Made by a program: the position numbers and the translations under genes. A stretch of 11,184 bases of DNA, from the NCBI GenBank assembly GCA_002401635.1, contig NVTQ01000004.1, positions 20,255-31,438 on the forward strand, written 5' to 3'. Source of the DNA: Pseudomonadota bacterium. GTDB lineage: Bacteria > Pseudomonadota > Zetaproteobacteria > Mariprofundales > Mariprofundaceae. The notes beneath the pieces were generated by a model that saw nothing but the letters and a program-made list of their open reading frames with translations, made no database searches and was not told the DNA's origin. Numbering within the stretch: position 1 is the stretch's first letter; the number at the start of each line of letters is the position of its first letter. Shown here piece by piece: positions 2,562 to 11,184 of the stretch.

Positions 2562-2588
2562 GGGCTGAGCATTGCTTGGCCCTTTTTT
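2562..2588 (+). terminator. Rho-independent terminator after the roadblock pair
   Basis: Stem 2562-2570 (GGGCTGAGC) pairs fully with 2574-2582 (GCTTGGCCC) with two G-U pairs and a 3-nt loop, followed by six T (2583-2588). The T run overlaps the stop codon of the convergent globin gene. Confidence 0.85.
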
Positions 2589-3477
2589 ATTGTGCTTTGG
2601 GAGACTGATACAGTATTGGTTTTTTCACTGTAAAAGGATGCTGACCCCAAACGCGCATCACACATTCATCAATACTATGCTTCTCAATAGAGGCATGAAA
2701 TGAATGGTCAACCGCTAACCAGCGTTGACACAACGCTTCACTTAAACCTTCTTCGAGAATGGCTCGCCTTAAATAAACATCACGAATGTCCGACATTTCT
2801 TTGGTGATGTACATATGCATATGTATAAAAGCAGGCGGCTCACCCGTATATAAGTTTTCACCGCCAAAAGCCGCCACCATAAACTCCGTTTGTTTGCGAA
2901 TAATAAGTTTTTTAGCCCGATGATGAAAAAATAAACCTATATAATCATCATCATACATATAATCATAAAACCGCTGATGTACACGCGTCACGACTTCTAT
3001 CTCACCAATTTCATCCATAAGTGCTGTGCTCTGCTGCTTGATAGATATTTTATCTTTTCCAGCACTTGGCGCATCACGCAACACTTCAACCATGATAGCA
3101 GCAACCTCTTGAAAGACATCTGACCATGCCTCTTTAAGCGCGGGTGTAAACGAATCTTGCAATGTGTCCTCAAGTGCCATCAGTAGCGCTTGATTGAAGT
3201 CTTTAAAGTGCGATGCCTCTGCATGGTAAGCAATATGACGCTTTGCCATACCTTCCAAGGCTACCGATATTTTATGTAAATCATGGACATTTTTAAACGT
3301 CGATAACATGCTATTAAACTTACGATTAAGTATGGGCACACCGCCATGAAAGATGTGTGTCAAACTAGGGTTTAGGCGAAATAGATGTGAATAAAAACTA
3401 CTACTTAATGCATTGATATTACTGCCTATTTGTTCGATATTTTTCTTTACCAATGCTTGGTGTTCAGTAAAAGACAC
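2587..3477 (-). CDS. Two-domain globin: flavohaemoglobin-type globin fused to truncated globin
   Basis: 296 residues, GTG start with GGAGG 8 nt upstream (no better ATG nearby). Residues about 5-135 form a full-length bacterial globin of the flavohaemoglobin/Vitreoscilla type: Tyr29 (B10), Phe43 (CD1, in LTHIFHGG) and His81 (proximal F8, in AKRHIAYH) fall at the expected spacing. Residues about 160-270 form a second, shorter globin of truncated type: RFYDYMYDDDYIGLFF (Tyr171 as B10), FMVAAFGGENLYTGEPP, then FIHMHMYIT with His219 as likely proximal ligand. The two are joined by a linker of about 25 residues with no reductase module. Such domains bind O2 or NO. With both proximal His present, both are predicted to bind haem; a role in NO detoxification or O2 sensing is inference. 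It lies 89 bp downstream of a group II truncated globin gene on the same strand, so co-transcription is likely. Confidence 0.85.
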   Translation of the reverse strand: MSFTEHQALVKKNIEQIGSNINALSSSFYSHLFRLNPSLTHIFHGGVPILNRKFNSMLSTFKNVHDLHKISVALEGMAKRHIAYHAEASHFKDFNQALLMALEDTLQDSFTPALKEAWSDVFQEVAAIMVEVLRDAPSAGKDKISIKQQSTALMDEIGEIEVVTRVHQRFYDYMYDDDYIGLFFHHRAKKLIIRKQTEFMVAAFGGENLYTGEPPAFIHMHMYITKEMSDIRDVYLRRAILEEGLSEALCQRWLAVDHSFHASIEKHSIDECVMRVWGQHPFTVKKPILYQSPKAQ

Positions 3478-3566: not shown

Positions 3567-3962
3567 TTAAGCGCTATTGCGCATAAAATCAGCAACACCA
3601 TACAAAGCTTGCATCAACTCATCACGCAACTCCTTTTCCTCTACAATATCATCAAGCGCATGTTTCATGCATAACATCCACTGATCGCGGGCTGATTCAT
3701 CAATGACAAAGTTGATGTGCCGCTGGCGTAAGCGAGGGTGTCCAAATTTCTCAATAAAGAGCGATGGCCCCCCCATCCAGCCTGATAGAAACATAAAAAG
3801 TTTATCTTCAGCACTTTTTAAATCTGGCGCATGCATATCACGGACTTTTTTGGCTTCACTCAGCTCATCCATATACTGGTAAAAGCTTTGTACAAGGCTG
3901 CGAAGTTTATCTTCACCACCCATACGCTCGTATAATGTTCGGGTATCTTTTTTGATTAACAT
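3567..3962 (-). CDS. Group II truncated haemoglobin (trHbO-type)
   Basis: 131 residues, the usual length. The group II hallmarks are clear: TLYERMGGEDKLRSLVQSFY at the start with Tyr28 as B10, GWMGGPSLFIEKFGHPRLRQRH with His82 as proximal ligand, and the helix G tryptophan (Trp95 in RDQWMLCM). The family binds O2 and NO and is often linked to protection from nitrosative or oxidative stress or to O2 delivery; the precise role here is unknown. The ATG start has only a weak GAG-type ribosome binding site, but the domain begins right after it. It heads a two-gene minus-strand unit with the two-domain globin. Its promoter region is shared with the divergent toxin-antitoxin operon; TTGTCA and TAAAAA 17 bp apart on the minus strand within the 4015-4045 region could serve it. 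Confidence 0.93.
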   Translation of the reverse strand: MLIKKDTRTLYERMGGEDKLRSLVQSFYQYMDELSEAKKVRDMHAPDLKSAEDKLFMFLSGWMGGPSLFIEKFGHPRLRQRHINFVIDESARDQWMLCMKHALDDIVEEKELRDELMQALYGVADFMRNSA

Positions 3963-4028: not shown

Positions 4029-4056
4029 TTGATATTTTGACAATATATTGTACAAT
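4029..4056 (+). promoter_or_regulatory. Toxin-antitoxin promoter and TGTACA operator
   Basis: TTGATA (4029-4034) and TACAAT (4051-4056) are separated by 16 bp, giving a good sigma70-type promoter with transcription starting near 4063. The perfect palindrome ATTGTACAAT (4047-4056) covers the -10 and contains TGTACA, the core reported for YefM-YoeB operators. A degenerate copy TTTGACAA (4036-4043) lies with its centre 12 bp upstream, the spacing known for paired YefM sites. This suggests autorepression by the antitoxin-toxin complex. Confidence 0.6.
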
Positions 4057-4078
4057 TAAGATGTTGAGGTACTTGAAT

Positions 4079-4333
4079 ATGCAAAACATTAGTTATTCAG
4101 AAGCAAGAAATAATCTTAAATCGTTGTGCGATGAAGTGCGTGAAAGCCATGAGCCTGCGTTGATTACACGCAAAGGTGGTGATGTGGTATTGATTGGTGC
4201 GGAAGACTGGGAAGCCATCAATGAAACCTTGGCAGTTACGGATATCAGAGGTGCAGTAGAACGCATTACATCGGCATCCGACTATCAAGCCCTAGAAAGC
4301 AATGATAAAGAAGAGTTAGAAGCATTACTTTGA
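4079..4333 (+). CDS. yefM: Phd/YefM-type antitoxin
   Basis: 84 residues from ATG 4079, preceded by GAGGT at 4066-4070. The longer in-frame start at 4037 falls inside the promoter and is rejected. The N-terminal part NISYSEARNNLKSLCDEVRESHEPALITRKGGDVVLIGAEDWEAI is the typical DNA-binding Phd/YefM fold: 'SEAR..L..l.d.v......v.ItR..g..vvliS..dy..l'. The C-terminal part (about 45-84) is the acidic, probably flexible region that wraps and neutralises the toxin. The partner is the YoeB/Txe-like gene downstream, which in relatives starts at or overlaps the antitoxin stop; here a 57-bp repeat lies between them. Autorepression through the TGTACA palindrome is expected. Confidence 0.9.
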   Translation: MQNISYSEARNNLKSLCDEVRESHEPALITRKGGDVVLIGAEDWEAINETLAVTDIRGAVERITSASDYQALESNDKEELEALL

Positions 4334-4341
4334 CTCCTTCT

Positions 4342-4398
4342 GTCATTCCCGCACAGGCGGGAATCCATAGATACCCAATACAAATACTTGGGTATGAC
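4342..4398. repeat. 57-bp double-hairpin repeat between antitoxin and toxin
   Basis: The element begins with GTCAT (4342-4346) and ends with its complement ATGAC (4394-4398). Inside are two perfect hairpins: ATTCCCGC-acag-GCGGGAAT (4345-4364) and ATACCCAA-(9)-TTGGGTAT (4371-4395). The 'gtcattcccgc..gcgggaatcc' core resembles an intergenic repeat scattered through many proteobacterial genomes. It lies 8 bp after the antitoxin stop and fills nearly all of the gap to the toxin. The second hairpin includes the upstream in-frame TTG and ATG of the toxin and could hide its translation start or tune the antitoxin:toxin ratio. Confidence 0.75.
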
Positions 4399-4408
4399 GA
4401 TAGTTTTG

Positions 4409-4675
4409 ATGCTTAAACCTTATTTATCCAAACAAACACGCCAACAAATTGCCAAACTATCCCGCAGTAACCCGAAGTTACTTGATGATGTAATTGCTGG
4501 CATCGCCAAGCTGCTACATGAGCCATTTACAGGTTCACACCGCCCCAAACCACTGGTGGGCGTGCTCAAAGGCTTTTGGTCTGTACGGATTAATCGAAAG
4601 GATAGAATCGTATATCAAGTTGAAGGAAATAAATTGTTAATCGCATCTGTTGAAGGACATTATAATGACCACTGA
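4409..4675 (+). CDS. yoeB: YoeB/Txe-family mRNA interferase-like toxin
   Basis: 88 residues from ATG 4409; in-frame TTG 4388 and ATG 4394 lie inside the repeat and none has a good ribosome binding site. Alignment to E. coli YoeB is nearly gapless with an offset of one: LLHEPFTGSHRPKPLVGVLKGFWSVRI matches its 'PFEGKGKPEPLK.LSGFWSRRI' block, then DRIVYQV and IASVEGHY. Two catalytic residues are kept (Arg66 and His84, equivalent to Arg65 and His83), but the general base Glu46 is replaced by Lys47. The N-terminal 20 residues are also unlike YoeB, which usually starts with a tryptophan-rich strand. Active YoeB cleaves mRNA in the ribosomal A site. Here activity may be lost or altered. The end overlaps the following ferredoxin gene by 11 bp. 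Confidence 0.85.
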   Translation: MLKPYLSKQTRQQIAKLSRSNPKLLDDVIAGIAKLLHEPFTGSHRPKPLVGVLKGFWSVRINRKDRIVYQVEGNKLLIASVEGHYNDH

Positions 4676-4974: not shown

Positions 4975-6255
4975 TTAAACAATCATACCTGCACCAACCG
5001 TATTGTTGGTAAAGCTATCAATAATGATAAAGCTGCCTGTGGTACGGTTATCAGCATACTTATCGTAATGAAGCGGTTGTTGTAGCTTGAAGGTGACCTG
5101 ACCAATCTCATTCATCGCCAATTCATCCGCAGCATCATGTGCCAAGGTATGAATATCGGTTTTGAAGTTAATTTCAGAAACCATGGCTTTAATCTGACTT
5201 GCGGCATGTTTGATGATGTATTTTTTGCGATTTTCCAATGGTTCATCACCAATCCAACACACATTGGCAGTCAATGCTTTGGTATCGGAATCTTCCTCAC
5301 CCACATGCATCAACATATCACCGCGCGAAACATCAATTTCATCATTCAACGTAATCGTAATACTTTGCGGTGCAAATGCTTCTTCAAGATTGCCATCAAA
5401 GGTCACAATTTCTTTCACCGTTGATGTTTTACCCGATGGTTTGACGACAATTTCATCACCCACTTTCACTGTTCCCGAAGCAATCGTACCCATAAAACCG
5501 CGATAATCTGGCAAATCGGCTGTTTGCGGGCGATTCAATAGTTGCACAGGCATGCGGAATGGTTTGCTATCCAAATCATCCAAAACAGACATCGATTCAA
5601 GTGTTTCGAGCAATGTTTCGCCTTGATACCAGCCCATATTATCGCCACGCACCGATACCATATCACCTGTCAGCGCAGACATTGGAATACAAATTAAATC
5701 TTTCACACCTTGTTTGGCACAGTATTCAGCCATTTCAGCCTTAATTTTTTCATAGGTGGCTTGATCATGGTCAACCAAATCCATTTTATTCACCGCAACA
5801 ATCAAGTGCGGGATACCCAGCAAGCCTAAAATATGGGTATGACGTTTGGTTTGTGCCAATACACCATGACGCGCATCAATCAAAATAATTGCGGCATTGG
5901 CAGTGGAAGAACCTGTCACCATATTACGTGTGTATTGCTCATGGCCAGGGCAATCTGCCATGATGAATTTGCGTTTCGGTGTGGCAAAATAACGGTAAGC
6001 CACATCAATGGTGATGCCTTGCTCACGCTCGGCTGATAAACCATCGGTCAACATTGCCAAATCAATTTCAGCAGCCGAAGATACTTTTACAGTACCCTTC
6101 TTTTTACGTACAGCCATCAACTGATCTTCAAATGCGCCCTTGGTATCCACTAGAAGGCGACCAATCAAGGTAGATTTACCATCATCGACACTGCCCACTG
6201 TTACCAAACGTAATAGTTCGATTTCTTTTGTTAGTTCAAAATTAAATTCAGTCAT
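4975..6255 (-). CDS. cysN: Sulfate adenylyltransferase subunit 1 (GTPase)
   Basis: 426 residues. It is the GTPase subunit that drives ATP sulfurylase (sulfate + ATP to APS) in complex with CysD in the cytoplasm. The GTP-binding motifs are complete: G1 GSVDDGKS (21-28), REQGIT (77-82), G3 DCPGH (101-105) and G4 NKMD (156-159). EF-Tu-like beta-barrel domains follow (from about 230, PFRMPVQ...DYRGFMGTIASGTVKVGDEI). No APS kinase (CysC) domain is attached at the C-terminus. AAAGGTG precedes the ATG. It is the last gene of the operon, 109 bp after cysD; most of that gap is a palindromic repeat. Confidence 0.97.
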   Translation of the reverse strand: MTEFNFELTKEIELLRLVTVGSVDDGKSTLIGRLLVDTKGAFEDQLMAVRKKKGTVKVSSAAEIDLAMLTDGLSAEREQGITIDVAYRYFATPKRKFIMADCPGHEQYTRNMVTGSSTANAAIILIDARHGVLAQTKRHTHILGLLGIPHLIVAVNKMDLVDHDQATYEKIKAEMAEYCAKQGVKDLICIPMSALTGDMVSVRGDNMGWYQGETLLETLESMSVLDDLDSKPFRMPVQLLNRPQTADLPDYRGFMGTIASGTVKVGDEIVVKPSGKTSTVKEIVTFDGNLEEAFAPQSITITLNDEIDVSRGDMLMHVGEEDSDTKALTANVCWIGDEPLENRKKYIIKHAASQIKAMVSEINFKTDIHTLAHDAADELAMNEIGQVTFKLQQPLHYDKYADNRTTGSFIIIDSFTNNTVGAGMIV

Positions 6256-6364: not shown

Positions 6365-7273
6365 CTAGAAATAGCCTTCTTTTTTCTTATCTTCCATAGA
6401 ATTGCTGCCATGATCAATAATACGTGTTTCACGCTCTGACCTACGTGCCGCAGCTGCTTCAATCACAATTTCATCCATATTCGTTGCATCAGAGCGCACA
6501 GCACCTGTACATGGGCTACAGCCCAACGTACGGAAACGAGACATAATCATCTTCGGCTCTTCCCCTTCAAGCAATTGATCTTTATTTTCTTCATAATACG
6601 GAATCAACATATTGCCACGTTCAATCATCGGGCGTTCTTTGGCAAAATATAAAGGTACGATTGGAATACCTTCATCTCGAATATAAGACCAAATATCCAT
6701 TTCCGTCCAGTTTGAAATCGGGAATACACGCACCGATTCGCCATCATGGATGCGACCATTATAAATATTCCACAATTCAGGACGTTGATTCTTCGGATCC
6801 CACTGCCCAAACTCATCACGCATAGAAAACACACGTTCTTTGGCGCGAGAGCGCTCTTCATCACGGCGTGCACCACCAAAAGCAGCATCATAACCACCTT
6901 CTTCCAAAGCAGCCAAAAGACCCGATGTTTTCAATGCCCCACAACAGCGTGCCACACCGAACTCTTTGGGGTTCATGCCTTTGGCAATGGCATCTTCATT
7001 CTTTTTGACAATTAAATCGGCACCGATTTCTTCACAGAAGGCATCGCGAAAATCATACATTTCTTTAAATTTAAAGCCTGTATCCACATGCAATAGTGAA
7101 AAAGGCAAGGGTGCAGGGTAAAATGCCTTGCGCGCCAAATGCACCATCACAGCTGAATCCTTACCCACAGAATACAACATCACAGGATTACGAAATTCCG
7201 CCACCACTTCACGAATAATGTGAATAGATTCGGCTTCCAAAGCCTTAAGCTGCGTTAATTTATGTTCTGACAT
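6365..7273 (-). CDS. cysD: Sulfate adenylyltransferase subunit 2
   Basis: 302 residues, the same length as E. coli CysD, if started at the ATG at 7271-7273. That start is preferred because GGAG (7283-7286) lies 9 nt before it and only 3 nt before the alternative ATG at 7279. It belongs to the N-type ATP pyrophosphatase superfamily: the PP-loop SVGKDS is at residues 35-40, followed by [36 protein letters not shown] and [13 protein letters not shown]. With CysN it makes APS from sulfate and ATP. Its ribosome binding site overlaps the cysH stop codon, 12 bp between the genes, so the two are translated from one message. Confidence 0.97.
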
Positions 7274-7285
7274 TTTCATAGACTC

Positions 7286-8008
7286 CTAAATTCCATCACC
7301 TGACTCACCTTCACCCTTTGGGGCTTTGAGCGAACTCACATGCAGACCGCACTCTGCCAAAGTATCTTGATTTTCCCACCACCAGCGACCAGCGCGCGGA
7401 TCTTCTCCCATGCTAATTGCCCGCGTACATGGCTCACAGCCAATGGACACATAAAACTCATCATGCAATGTGTTGTATGGCAAATCGTGTTCACGAATAT
7501 ATGCCCATACATCTTTTTCTGTCCAATTGCGCATCGGATTGTACTTTTTCAAACCATACACAGGATCATCTTCTACTGGCGATATTTCAGCACGATTCTT
7601 TGCCTGGTCTTTACGCCGTCCTGTAATCCATGCTTGCATACCATGCAGGGCTTTTTCTAAAGGCTTCACCTTACGAATCTGACAACATAACTTGCGATTT
7701 TCCACAGACTTCAAAAATAAATTCACACCATGCTCATGCACCATGTTTTGTACTGCATTCGAATCAGGAAATAACACATCCAGCACATTGCCATAACGCT
7801 CTCGTATCGCATCCATCAGCGCATATGTGGCTTGCGGCAAACGCCCTGTATCCAATGTTACAATCCGAATATCTAAGTGATTGCGACAAATCAAATCAAT
7901 TAACACCATACCCTGTGAACCCAAGCTACATGAATAAACCAGCTTATCCCCGTGCTGGGCTTTGGCTTCGCGCAACAATGACACTGCCTCATCAATCAAA
8001 AGCTTCAT
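7286..8008 (-). CDS. cysH: Adenylylsulfate (APS) reductase, Fe-S type
   Basis: 240 residues from ATG 8008, with GGAGG 4 nt upstream; the longer in-frame start at 8047 lies inside the preceding gene without support. A modified PP-loop SCSLGSQG (26-33) is followed by the 4Fe-4S ligand pattern Cys108-Cys109 ... Cys191-x2-Cys194 and the C-terminal catalytic cysteine in ECGLH (Cys220). The CC...CxxC set marks APS reductase (APS to sulfite and AMP, thioredoxin-dependent) rather than the cluster-free PAPS reductase. That agrees with the lack of an APS kinase gene in this operon. The start overlaps the previous stop as ATGA, so translation is probably coupled to the radical SAM-transporter gene. Confidence 0.95.
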   Translation of the reverse strand: MKLLIDEAVSLLREAKAQHGDKLVYSCSLGSQGMVLIDLICRNHLDIRIVTLDTGRLPQATYALMDAIRERYGNVLDVLFPDSNAVQNMVHEHGVNLFLKSVENRKLCCQIRKVKPLEKALHGMQAWITGRRKDQAKNRAEISPVEDDPVYGLKKYNPMRNWTEKDVWAYIREHDLPYNTLHDEFYVSIGCEPCTRAISMGEDPRAGRWWWENQDTLAECGLHVSSLKAPKGEGESGDGI

Positions 8009-10638
8009 TGAACCTCCAGTAATGATAATCCAACCACGGGCCACCAATAGGTTGCGACCAGTATAAACAATAAAAACGCCGAGAGCGACAGCACCGCGCC
8101 ATAACGCAGCATGCTTCCACTATTTAGATAACCACTGGCATAAATCATGGCATTGGGTGGCGTGCCCATGGTTAACATAAAAGCAAAACCTGCAATAATA
8201 CCAATCGTTAACGCAACACCTACAGGGTCAAGACCTGCCGCCATGCCAATTGGCATCGCAATCGGCAAAACAATGGCAACAGCGGCAGCATTGCTCACAC
8301 CTTCTGTAAAAAATAACGTCATCAATACCAACAGTGCTACCAGTGCCAAACCCACCATATCACCTGGAATAAGGCTATGCGCCAACCACATAGCAGCACC
8401 TGTATCAGATAGTGCTTTACCAATCGCAATCGCGCCGCCATACATGAGTACAACACTCCAAGACACGTGCTGCTCAATCGCTTTCCATTCCACCAAACGC
8501 AAAGCAAACATCAATACAACAGCAATCAAAGAAATACTTGCCAGTGTATTGGCATGCCCTGCAAGCACCCATGCCAAGACCGTTGCTGACATTAACACTG
8601 CCATCAACCAGCCTTTTATCCCAAGACCACCCAACTCAAGGCGACGCTGAGTAAAGCGTTGACGCACTGCTTGTAAATCCAAAGTTACATATGAAGTCAT
8701 GCGCAACAATAAATACAAAGCAACGGATAACACACCAATCACCAATGGCAATGCCGCTAACGTCCATTGTAAAAATGAAAATGAATGTCCTGTAAGTTCA
8801 CTGCTTAATGCCAAAGCCAAAGGACCTCGCGCACCACCAAGCAATGTGGTTACCCCGCCAATAATTGCACCCCATGCCAATGCAAAAAAGATAGCCTGTG
8901 CATAAACATGACCTTTTTTTAGCCCCAAACTACGTACGATTTCCCAAGCAATCGGCAAAAACAATGCCGCCACAGCATGCTCTGGCATCACACATGCCAT
9001 CAATGCTGGTAACAATAACATCGCACATAAAAGTTGTTTTGGACTATGCGCTACACGATCCAGTATGCCCAAAGCAACACGTTCGGATAAACCGCTTTGC
9101 ATCACACCAGCAACCAGCATAAAAGCACCCAAAATAAAGAAGACTGCGGGGTTACCAAACAAAGCAAACACATTCGATGCGGGCATCACGCCCAGCATGG
9201 GCAACAAAGCCATGCCTAACAACGATGTCACAGCCAAGGGTAACAATTGCGTTACCCACAATACCAAACATAACAAGAAGACAAGTAATGCCTGCCAGCC
9301 TTCAGAACTCAAACCTTCAGGCGCATCGGAAATGGCTCCAACTGCAAATGCCATCACAATCATGAACATCACCACAAAGGGTGCTGCCTGTGCAGCCAAT
9401 AAACGATGGAAAGGTCTATCATCAGTCTTTTCACCTTTTCCAACACGCACATGTCTGCGTAAACCATCCAGCCAACCACCCCAATGTCTGCCAAACGATG
9501 ATATGACCCAACGTTCCGATAAAGCAGGCTGCTCACCATCCAATACGCGACTTTCCATGGGGGTTAATACCCGCCCCATATCACGCAAACGATGGGTCGG
9601 AAGACCCGATGTTTCCAATAAGTGATATTGTAATAACAAGGCATTTTCAACATCATCCAAAGCTGGTATTTTCACATCCTGCAGGGGGGTGCCCGGTAAA
9701 GGTCGAAAAGGAATCAATAAAGGTACAATGCCTTTATCTATCAATGCTTTTAAGCCAGACAAGGTTGATTCCAAAGGCTCTAAACCAACAATCAAATGAC
9801 TCACGACAGCACCTGATCGAAATACTTTATTCGCATGCTCTAAGGCATGCCAAATAGCATCTTGCCCACCTTGCCGCTCTTTGCCTGGACAAATTTCTGC
9901 AAAACGCTTGCCATCAAAGACTTCCAAGTTACAAATGAAAATATCCAAGCCCGCAGCATATAACGCGTCAATCACACTGACATCTTTCGGCGCAACCGTT
10001 TCCAGAGCAATCTGCCTGTGCCCCAAGTGCCTACGTAACAAAGCAATCACGGGAATCAAACGCGACAAACCCACATCATCATTGGGTGTGAAGCCGTTGT
10101 ACAAATAGACTGTATCAACTTCACGTTCATCCAAGGCTGCCAGCACCACTTCGACCAATTCCAAGGCATCACGCAACGGTGGTTGTTCCTCATTGAGCAT
10201 CGAATCAAACTGGCAATAAGCACACGCCTGATCTGGCTGCGCAAAAAAACCACAGCCCATAAACGGCTGTAAAATCAATAATCGATCATGCAGAGAAGCA
10301 AAACTTCCCATGCGCGAACCTTTACGGGTCAATTTGCTATAAAAAGCAGGTGCTTCCACCAATTCAACCGTTTCAGTCTCACCACCACACGACATGACAG
10401 CCATACCATCATCCCCAAGCTTTAAAGAAAAACCACTGGCCTCTGTATAAGGCTGACCAACAGGTACGGAACAAAAATGTCCACTGGGTAAACGCACATC
10501 CAATGTTGATTCTGCACTATTGGATTGCGCCAACCAGCGTGAACTATCAGGCAAACCATCAGGCAATGCCAAACCACGACTCACCAAGGAAAGCTTGGTG
10601 CGCCCGGGGTTGGAAAAAGGATGCAGATCGTCAGTCAT
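8005..10638 (-). CDS. Radical SAM domain fused to SLC13-type anion transporter
   Basis: 877 residues in one uninterrupted frame. Residues 1-395 are soluble. LILQPFMGCGFF...ACAYCQF gives Cys129, Cys139 and Cys142 (C-x9-C-x2-C), the likely 4Fe-4S/SAM site. A TIM-barrel-like series follows: DTVYLYNGFTP, IALETVAPKD, DIFICNLEVFD, EICPGKE, VSHLIVGLEP, LIPFRPLPGTPLQD. The layout recalls the MSMEG_0568-like/biotin synthase-like radical SAM proteins; the substrate is unknown. After a basic linker (391-411) come roughly a dozen hydrophobic segments (415-873) of the SLC13/DASS family, with the conserved FFILGAFMLVAGVMQSGLSER (500-520), EGVSNAAAVAIVLPIA (779-794) and GTPPNAMIYASGY (825-837). Sulfate is the likely cargo because cysH, cysD and cysN follow. 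The ATG abuts the upstream stop (TAA-ATG) and the end overlaps cysH as ATGA. The fold calls are firm; the joint function is inference. Confidence 0.85.
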   Translation of the reverse strand: MTDDLHPFSNPGRTKLSLVSRGLALPDGLPDSSRWLAQSNSAESTLDVRLPSGHFCSVPVGQPYTEASGFSLKLGDDGMAVMSCGGETETVELVEAPAFYSKLTRKGSRMGSFASLHDRLLILQPFMGCGFFAQPDQACAYCQFDSMLNEEQPPLRDALELVEVVLAALDEREVDTVYLYNGFTPNDDVGLSRLIPVIALLRRHLGHRQIALETVAPKDVSVIDALYAAGLDIFICNLEVFDGKRFAEICPGKERQGGQDAIWHALEHANKVFRSGAVVSHLIVGLEPLESTLSGLKALIDKGIVPLLIPFRPLPGTPLQDVKIPALDDVENALLLQYHLLETSGLPTHRLRDMGRVLTPMESRVLDGEQPALSERWVISSFGRHWGGWLDGLRRHVRVGKGEKTDDRPFHRLLAAQAAPFVVMFMIVMAFAVGAISDAPEGLSSEGWQALLVFLLCLVLWVTQLLPLAVTSLLGMALLPMLGVMPASNVFALFGNPAVFFILGAFMLVAGVMQSGLSERVALGILDRVAHSPKQLLCAMLLLPALMACVMPEHAVAALFLPIAWEIVRSLGLKKGHVYAQAIFFALAWGAIIGGVTTLLGGARGPLALALSSELTGHSFSFLQWTLAALPLVIGVLSVALYLLLRMTSYVTLDLQAVRQRFTQRRLELGGLGIKGWLMAVLMSATVLAWVLAGHANTLASISLIAVVLMFALRLVEWKAIEQHVSWSVVLMYGGAIAIGKALSDTGAAMWLAHSLIPGDMVGLALVALLVLMTLFFTEGVSNAAAVAIVLPIAMPIGMAAGLDPVGVALTIGIIAGFAFMLTMGTPPNAMIYASGYLNSGSMLRYGAVLSLSAFLLFILVATYWWPVVGLSLLEVQ

Positions 10639-11184
10639 TTAAATTTGAGAAATTTTCTCTACTACAATACGCCACTGCGTATCAGAAAGTTTTTCTTTTA
10701 CATGCACTTTTTGACCTTGCTCTTCCAAAGATAGCGGCACATTTTCAATCGGTGCGCCATCATCAAGAATCACTTCCAACTGCGAACCAATTGCCATCGT
10801 TGAAAGCTTTATTTTCGTTTTCACAAAGTTCATCGGACATGCCACACCTGACAAATCCAAGCTCACAACATCCGATGCAGATTCGCTTTCAACAACTTCT
10901 TCTGCCGCTTCAGCAGCATCGGGCACAGCTGCAAAACGTTTATCTGCCAAGGCAACCCAAGCACCTTGCACATCTTTAAGTTTGGTTACACCCGCCGCAG
11001 GATCTGCCAAATCAATGCTCATCAATGCACCTTGTACGGCATTAAAATGCTGCATCACTTCCGCATCAGAAGCCACATTACTCATCAATAAAACAAACAC
11101 TTCCGCATCATCTTCAGGGGCTTCGCCATAAGCTACCAAGAAAGCACGTGCAGTAGAGGTTGCAGACCTACGCAAGGCTGTTTG
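10639..11184 (-). CDS. 3' end of a TusA-domain protein, probably the tail of a sulfite reductase fusion
   Basis: The frame runs to the right window edge without a stop; a TTG at 11175 is in frame but has no ribosome binding site, so I read this as the C-terminal 181 residues of a longer gene. The visible part begins with a helical region (ALRRSATSTARAFLVAYGEAPEDDAEVF...) that looks like the HEPN-like extension seen after sulfite/nitrite reductase cores. An acidic linker (AAEAAEEVVESESASD) leads to a TusA/SirA-like domain: LDLSGVACPMNFVKTKIKL, with the family Cys-Pro, then GSQLEVILDDGAPIENVPLSLEEQG. TusA domains carry sulfur as a persulfide on that cysteine. Position at the head of the cysHDN operon fits assimilatory sulfite reduction. 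The TusA call is firm and the sulfite reductase link is inference. Confidence 0.7.
   Translation of the reverse strand, partial: QTALRRSATSTARAFLVAYGEAPEDDAEVFVLLMSNVASDAEVMQHFNAVQGALMSIDLADPAAGVTKLKDVQGAWVALADKRFAAVPDAAEAAEEVVESESASDVVSLDLSGVACPMNFVKTKIKLSTMAIGSQLEVILDDGAPIENVPLSLEEQGQKVHVKEKLSDTQWRIVVEKISQI

What the first reader, a model, noticed from the sequence alone, without database searches (positions are those of the whole stretch)
8005..10638. Radical SAM enzyme fused to an SLC13 anion transporter inside a sulfate assimilation operon
One continuous frame joins a radical SAM module (Cys129/139/142, barrel to about 330) to a complete SLC13-type carrier (415-873). The gene is translationally linked on both sides (TAA-ATG and ATGA). 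A radical enzyme tethered to a membrane carrier at the entry point of sulfate assimilation is not an arrangement I know. It might modify a sulfur compound as it enters, or regulate or report on import. Sulfonate or sulfate-ester use is another possibility.
Basis: partly seen in the sequence, partly recalled or inferred. Interest (0 to 1): 0.8.

Follow-up and report, generated by a model that had tools for sequence, protein, structure and literature searches.

The report
Radical-SAM module tethered to sulfate importer
In iron-oxidising Zetaproteobacteria the carrier that probably brings sulfate into the cell carries an attached radical-SAM enzyme module, inside a gene array headed by the genome's single detected switch for the end product SAM, so uptake of sulfur may be tied directly to how much SAM the cell already has.

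Summary
It is no artefact. The rSAM half is in 74 of 78 Zetaproteobacteria genomes (39 of 39 good ones): one frame across the junction in 65, adjacent separate genes in 7, undetermined in 2. A rooted carrier tree puts standalone genes first, with repeated fusion and/or fission. The rSAM half is akin to NitD (MSMEG_0568) but a separate subfamily; its Cys triad is invariant (183 of 183). The carrier is of a "PEH" DASS subclade; a non-Zeta genome has a 39%-identical one right behind ATP sulfurylase in a homologous operon, without rSAM, so sulfate import is the best reading. New here: the genome's only detected SAM riboswitch heads this array (67 of 78 genomes; 6.1-7.6 kb upstream in 45 of 45 same-contig cases). 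Best explanation: a sulfate importer whose SAM/[4Fe-4S]-binding module ties import to SAM status, as SPX restrains the yeast DASS carriers Pho87/Pho90. Importer plus intact rSAM module is well supported; the control step is inferred. A catalyst merely docked at the carrier remains a close rival.

The parts
8005..10638 (-). Fused gene, 877 aa: N-terminal variant radical-SAM module + C-terminal SLC13/DASS carrier
9445..10638 (-). [not shown]
10213..10254 (-). Cluster motif C129-x9-C139-x2-C142; each Cys invariant in 183 of 183 close relatives scored
9889..9933 (-). C236 (in CNLE) and C250 (in CPGK): invariant in 187 of 187 close relatives, never in the 12 NitD-like rows compared; P0188 has only the second
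9397..9444 (-). Linker, residues 399-414; in split relatives the stop and start codons lie here, overlapping as TGATG or ATGA in four of the seven read
8005..9396 (-). [not shown]
8977..8985 (-). PEH (residues 552-554) in place of the first SNT motif of VcINDY
8827..8838 (-). GGAR (residues 601-604), invariant in the carriers compared inside and outside Zeta
8287..8295 (-). SNA (residues 782-784), second substrate motif (SNT in VcINDY)
10639..11184 (-). C-terminal end of the upstream gene, siroheme sulfite/nitrite-type reductase fused to TusA (full gene 779 aa, L042 10893-13232)
7286..8008 (-). cysH (APS/PAPS reductase family), start codon overlaps the stop of the fused gene (ATGA)
6365..7279 (-). 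cysD
4975..6255 (-). cysN

Best explanation
The gene encodes a Na+-coupled (inferred) sulfate importer of the SLC13/DASS type with a cytoplasmic (inferred) N-terminal radical-SAM module. It works within one class-wide gene array: SAM riboswitch - thrC - thiS - NIL - cysM - moeB - Sir/TusA - rSAM-SLC13 - cysH - cysD - cysN, which takes sulfate to cysteine and methionine and so to SAM. The riboswitch, by its family and the terminator behind it, should stop transcription of the array when SAM is plentiful. The rSAM module, which keeps its [4Fe-4S] cysteines and the residues shared with its Cys-bearing relatives, most likely gives the same product a second hold, on the carrier protein itself: with SAM and an intact cluster bound, or through SAM-consuming chemistry on the carrier or an adjacent partner, it changes the import rate. 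This would be the design of SPX-DASS carriers with another sensor. Shown: fusion, conservation, gene order, riboswitch match, predicted folds. Well supported inference: sulfate as cargo, and a module able to hold cluster and SAM. Inferred only: SAM-dependent control of import and its sign.
Against: No experiment. The riboswitch controls the whole array, so it says little about the rSAM module as such. The G001 contrast is one genome, and it differs also in Sat instead of CysDN. 62 positions invariant in the Zeta group and never seen in NitD, including C236 and C250, look as much like an enzyme's substrate pocket as a sensor's; nearly all characterised rSAM proteins are catalysts (recalled). 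SulP-type genes occur in 70 of 78 Zeta genomes, so this may not be the only sulfate carrier. PEH/SNA motifs differ from VcINDY's. 10 of 74 rSAM genomes gave no riboswitch hit, two of them good genomes (G096, G144). In five loci no cysH/D/N match follows in the stretch fetched. Terminator-like sites in the region are no more than expected by chance in number (16 found, 12.9 expected). pTM of the whole model is 0.74, so the placement of the halves is not established.
Confidence: 0.43

Rival explanations
1. The rSAM half is an ordinary catalyst: it makes or modifies a small molecule, a cofactor or a sulfur-carrier intermediate of the Sir/TusA-ThiS-MoeB route, and is attached to the carrier for co-localisation or co-production, without gating import.
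Against: No substrate or product can be named. LipA and BioB are present separately. No motif like the NitD C-terminal Cys motif. The carrier link is kept or re-made repeatedly, although Sir/TusA would be a nearer partner for sulfur transfer.
Confidence: 0.36
2. Read-through of neighbours: the halves were joined because the genes overlap, and the fusion has no functional meaning beyond both being needed in sulfate assimilation.
For: In four of the seven split loci read, stop and start codons overlap (TGATG or ATGA), one step from fusion. Trees allow several independent changes.
Against: This does not explain why the rSAM gene stays next to the carrier in all 7 split genomes, nor why 65 genomes keep one frame. 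The equally overlapping pair fused gene/cysH is not joined in the window.
Confidence: 0.11
3. The carrier brings in an organic sulfonate or sulfate ester and the radical enzyme cleaves it.
For: SLC13 carriers can take organic dianions; radical chemistry needs a C-H bond (both recalled).
Against: No sulfonate or sulfatase gene was identified among the array genes searched with family models; CysDN/CysH/Sir are the inorganic sulfate route. The G001 homologue follows ATP sulfurylase. The gene is present in all 39 good genomes of the class, which suggests a housekeeping role.
Confidence: 0.06
4. Assembly or frame artefact.
For: The window comes from a 79% complete draft genome.
Against: One frame across the junction stands in 65 of 78 genomes and in proteins of named organisms such as Ghiorsea bivora and Mariprofundus ferrooxydans.
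Confidence: 0.01

Closest known systems
SPX-DASS phosphate carriers (yeast Pho87/Pho90)
   Different: The sensor is SPX (inositol pyrophosphates), not a radical-SAM module; phosphate, not sulfate; eukaryotic.
NitD / MSMEG_0568 family radical SAM protein (TIGR04043, Nit1C cluster)
   Same: Same rSAM superfamily model (NF045502), same CX9CX2C motif, 43 shared conserved positions.
   Different: 22-25% identity to the NitD-like rows; scores 89 bits against a cut-off of 304; lacks the C-terminal Cys motif; not in a nitrilase cluster.
Lipoyl synthase / BioB-type radical SAM enzymes
   Different: No comparable auxiliary-cluster cysteine sets; LipA and BioB are present separately.
Bacterial DASS sulfate transporters (Rhodobacter capsulatus and others, reviewed in PMC5840216)
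   Same: DASS carriers shown to move sulfate for assimilation, mostly low affinity (passages); the window's carrier half folds like NaS1.
   Different: No rSAM module is mentioned in that paper ('radical SAM' and 'fusion' occur 0 times in its main text); the PEH carriers were not compared with those sequences here.
SAM-I (S-box) riboswitch operons
   Same: RF00162 with a following terminator-like stem ahead of sulfur/methionine genes.
   Different: The only copy detected in each of 67 Zeta genomes, and the array behind it contains a SAM-type protein fused to the importer.

Membership tests
Radical SAM superfamily | Three-Cys motif for the SAM-bound [4Fe-4S] cluster | tested here: met
   C129-x9-C139-x2-C142, each 183 of 183 in close relatives; spacing is the variant CX9CX2C, not CX3CX2C
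Radical SAM superfamily | Radical-SAM barrel fold | tested here: met
   [not shown]
Radical SAM superfamily | Reductive SAM cleavage | not testable with these tools
   needs anaerobic biochemistry
NitD / TIGR04043 | Curated family score (303.7 bits) | tested here: not met
   89.1 bits; a true NitD, L120, scores 574.8
NitD / TIGR04043 | C-terminal Cys motif GC[GA]xCGACS, seen in all 12 NitD-like rows L120-L131 | tested here: not met
   the window protein has no Cys between 250 and 457; alignment
NitD / Nit1C cluster | Nitrilase and AIR-synthase neighbours | tested here: not met
   neighbours are sulfate-assimilation genes; L120 has CN_hydrolase and AIRS
Lipoyl synthase (LipA) | TIGR00510 profile | tested here: not met
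   not among the window protein's NCBIfam matches at E <= 0.01; LipA elsewhere in the genomes: 75 of 78 match, 65 over cut-off
Lipoyl synthase (LipA) | Auxiliary [4Fe-4S] CX4CX5C motif (recalled) | tested here: not met
   Cys before the barrel only at 56 and 84, neither among the positions conserved at 98.5%
SLC13/DASS (TIGR00785) | Curated score and full-length carrier fold | tested here: met
   [not shown]
SLC13/DASS (TIGR00785) | Two SNT-type substrate/Na+ motifs as in VcINDY | tested here: inconclusive
   first is PEH, second SNA; 43-48%-identical carriers outside Zeta have PEH or SEH
DASS sulfate transporter | Sulfate uptake | not testable with these tools
   inferred from the operon and from the G001 homologue after ATP sulfurylase
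SPX-DASS carriers | N-terminal SPX domain | tested here: not met
   Pfam finds Radical_SAM and no SPX; 'works like' is proposed, membership is not
SAM-I riboswitch operon | RF00162 over gathering score upstream on the same strand, with a terminator | tested here: met
   74.0 bits against 44.4 at L042 17357-17486 (-), terminator-like stem 17309-17285

The most novel reading that the evidence does not exclude
A SAM-gated nutrient importer: a radical-SAM fold, [4Fe-4S] cluster included, used (or doubly used) as an end-product and cluster-status sensor on a sulfate carrier, so that the same metabolite closes the tap through a riboswitch at the RNA level and through the tethered module at the protein level. 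To my knowledge it would be the first radical-SAM protein shown to control transport.
Probability: 0.3. Interest if true: 0.87.

Novelty: new variant of a known kind. Interest (0 to 1): 0.62.

Why it matters
Radical-SAM proteins are known as catalysts (recalled); one kept next to, and repeatedly joined to, a nutrient carrier in a whole bacterial class points either to an unknown SAM-dependent step at the start of sulfur assimilation or to direct end-product control of an importer. Seawater holds about 28 mM sulfate (recalled), so a marine Na+-driven carrier would need throttling more than help (inference). The system offers a clean test: natural fused and split versions, a Cys-less related family, a homologous carrier without the module, and a riboswitch that names SAM as the array's likely signal.

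Tried and rejected
Artefact: rejected. Replacement of lipoyl or biotin synthase by the rSAM half: rejected, both are present separately (LipA 75 of 78 matches, 65 over cut-off; BioB 77 of 78, 69 over cut-off; matches under the cut-off include other rSAM proteins). Membership in NitD: rejected on score, C-terminal motif and neighbours. My idea that the NIL protein, too, is absent from G001 was wrong: it is there at 45% identity. Carrier as the only sulfate transporter: not shown, SulP-type genes in 70 of 78 genomes (that family also holds bicarbonate carriers, recalled). ATP sulfurylase (Sat) in Zeta: 1 of 78. In plasmid records the annotated matches listed were all MSMEG_0568-type (4 of 4 records listed, one without annotation, 15 of 32 records listed, several without annotation); the carrier half found nothing above 33% identity among the 12 of 17 records listed (motifs not checked). 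A profile search of 398 Pseudomonadota genomes found matches at E <= 1e-12 in 73 Zeta genomes and NitD-level ones (56-117 bits) in 16 others. Solved-structure sequence search with the rSAM half: no match at E <= 1. Papers: searches gave no description of this fusion; the library holds open-licence papers only. C236-C250 distance not measured, as model coordinates were not in the script box.

Full report
What is there. The gene runs on the minus strand from 10638 to 8005 and encodes 877 residues without an internal stop. Residues 62-330 match the variant radical-SAM model NF045502 (182 bits, cut-off 125), residues 439-866 the DASS carrier model TIGR00785 (246 bits, cut-off 199). The cysteines are C129-x9-C139-x2-C142. 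Upstream the Sir/TusA gene ends TAA and the ATG follows at once; downstream the stop overlaps the cysH start as ATGA.

How widespread. The 120 listed homologues (of 464 found; the query's own among the 120) all cover at least 95% of the query; the named ones are Ghiorsea, Mariprofundus, Mariprofundaceae and other Zetaproteobacteria. In the class Zetaproteobacteria 74 of 78 genomes carry the rSAM half, 39 of 39 of the good ones; the four without are 57-88% complete. From the tables, 65 of the 74 have both halves in one frame across the junction, 7 have two adjacent genes on the same strand, and in 2 the contig ends first (tally by eye). Blemishes away from the junction: G203 has a stop at residue 43, G152 a frame change near residue 636, and the split rSAM of G144 is itself in two pieces. 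In four of the seven split loci read, stop and start overlap as TGATG or ATGA; in the other three they do not.

History. An rSAM tree of 159 rows needs 3 changes between fused, split and outgroup (its outgroup branch is very long). A carrier tree of 141 rows rooted on 11 outside carriers needs 4. A careful tree of 77 rows, rooted on 5, needs 5 changes for the fused label, at least 3 forced by well supported branches, and its deepest Zeta-type branch is standalone. So separate genes came first, and fusion and/or fission then happened more than once. That the earliest separate genes were neighbours is inferred from the 7 split genomes, in all of which they are. Two single standalone rows nested in fused clades (P0253, P0254) may be fissions or incomplete records.

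The array and its switch. Outside the window the array reads thrC-thiS-NIL-cysM-moeB-Sir/TusA-rSAM-SLC13-cysH-cysD-cysN. Exceptions: L043 and L056 show no cysH match between carrier and cysD, and in five loci (L047, L049-L052) no cysH/D/N match follows in the stretch fetched. A SAM-I riboswitch lies about 120 bases before thrC, with a terminator-like stem of 9 pairs between; such stems are not more frequent in the region than in shuffles, so this one counts by its place. The class-wide search, made with Infernal's stricter filters, finds the riboswitch in 67 of 78 genomes, one each, 37 of 39 good ones. Of the 64 genomes with both riboswitch and rSAM hits, 45 have them on one contig, all 45 on the same strand 6118-7587 bases apart; 19 have them on different contigs; 10 rSAM genomes gave no riboswitch hit (G096 and G144 are good genomes); 3 have the riboswitch but no rSAM hit. 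G001 has none in the whole genome. That the array is one transcript is inferred from the conserved order.

Mechanism. Sulfate offers no C-H bond to a deoxyadenosyl radical, so the module is unlikely to act on the cargo. Three readings remain: control of import, ordinary catalysis docked at the carrier, or a meaningless join. I favour control: SAM is the array's predicted RNA-level signal, the module's ligand would be the same molecule, the pair stays together whether fused or split, and yeast SPX-DASS carriers show that an N-terminal domain can restrain a DASS carrier (passages of PMC7381174). The case against is that rSAM proteins are usually catalysts and that the Zeta-specific invariant residues could line a substrate pocket. 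I put control at 0.43 and catalysis at 0.36; sulfate import with an intact rSAM module, common to both, I hold at about 0.8.

Novelty. DASS carriers with an N-terminal control domain are known, radical-SAM superfamily members are known, SAM riboswitch operons are known. A radical-SAM module on a DASS carrier was not described in anything my paper searches returned (open-licence library). Of papers I saw passages of PMC5840216, PMC10980263, PMC7381174, PMC4643136 and PMC10138600, and of all others only the listing. New variant of a known kind; if SAM gating were shown it would be a new role for the fold.

Noticed in passing
G000:C36:37357-37486 (-), L042 17357-17486, outside the window: SAM-I riboswitch ahead of thrC; the only RF00162 copy detected in each of 67 Zetaproteobacteria genomes.
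   Followed up: yes
proteins P0193-P0200: A group of eight rSAM-fold relatives (28-31% identity) that have lost all three cluster cysteines and other residues shared with NitD: apparent pseudo-radical-SAM proteins of unknown context.
   Followed up: partly
window 4037-4333 and 4388-4675 (+): YefM/YoeB-type toxin-antitoxin pair between the end of cysN and the globin genes.
   Followed up: no
window 2587-3477 (-): 296-aa protein with two globin-type domains in tandem (Globin 56-128, Bac_globin 153-255), next to a separate truncated globin at 3567-3962 (-).
   Followed up: no
L004, L007, L009, L011, L012, L046, L054, L055, L057, L058, L060, L061: A second TusA-like match after cysH (before cysD where the stretch reaches it) in these relatives, not found in the window's own array.
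   Followed up: no
L133 (G001:C7): A non-Zeta genome, the only one held for its class, with a homologous sulfate operon using ATP sulfurylase and a PEH-type SLC13 carrier but no rSAM between them.
   Followed up: yes
L042 10893-13232 (-): The sulfite reductase/TusA gene of the window's genome contains ambiguous residues (X) just beyond the window's right end.
   Followed up: no
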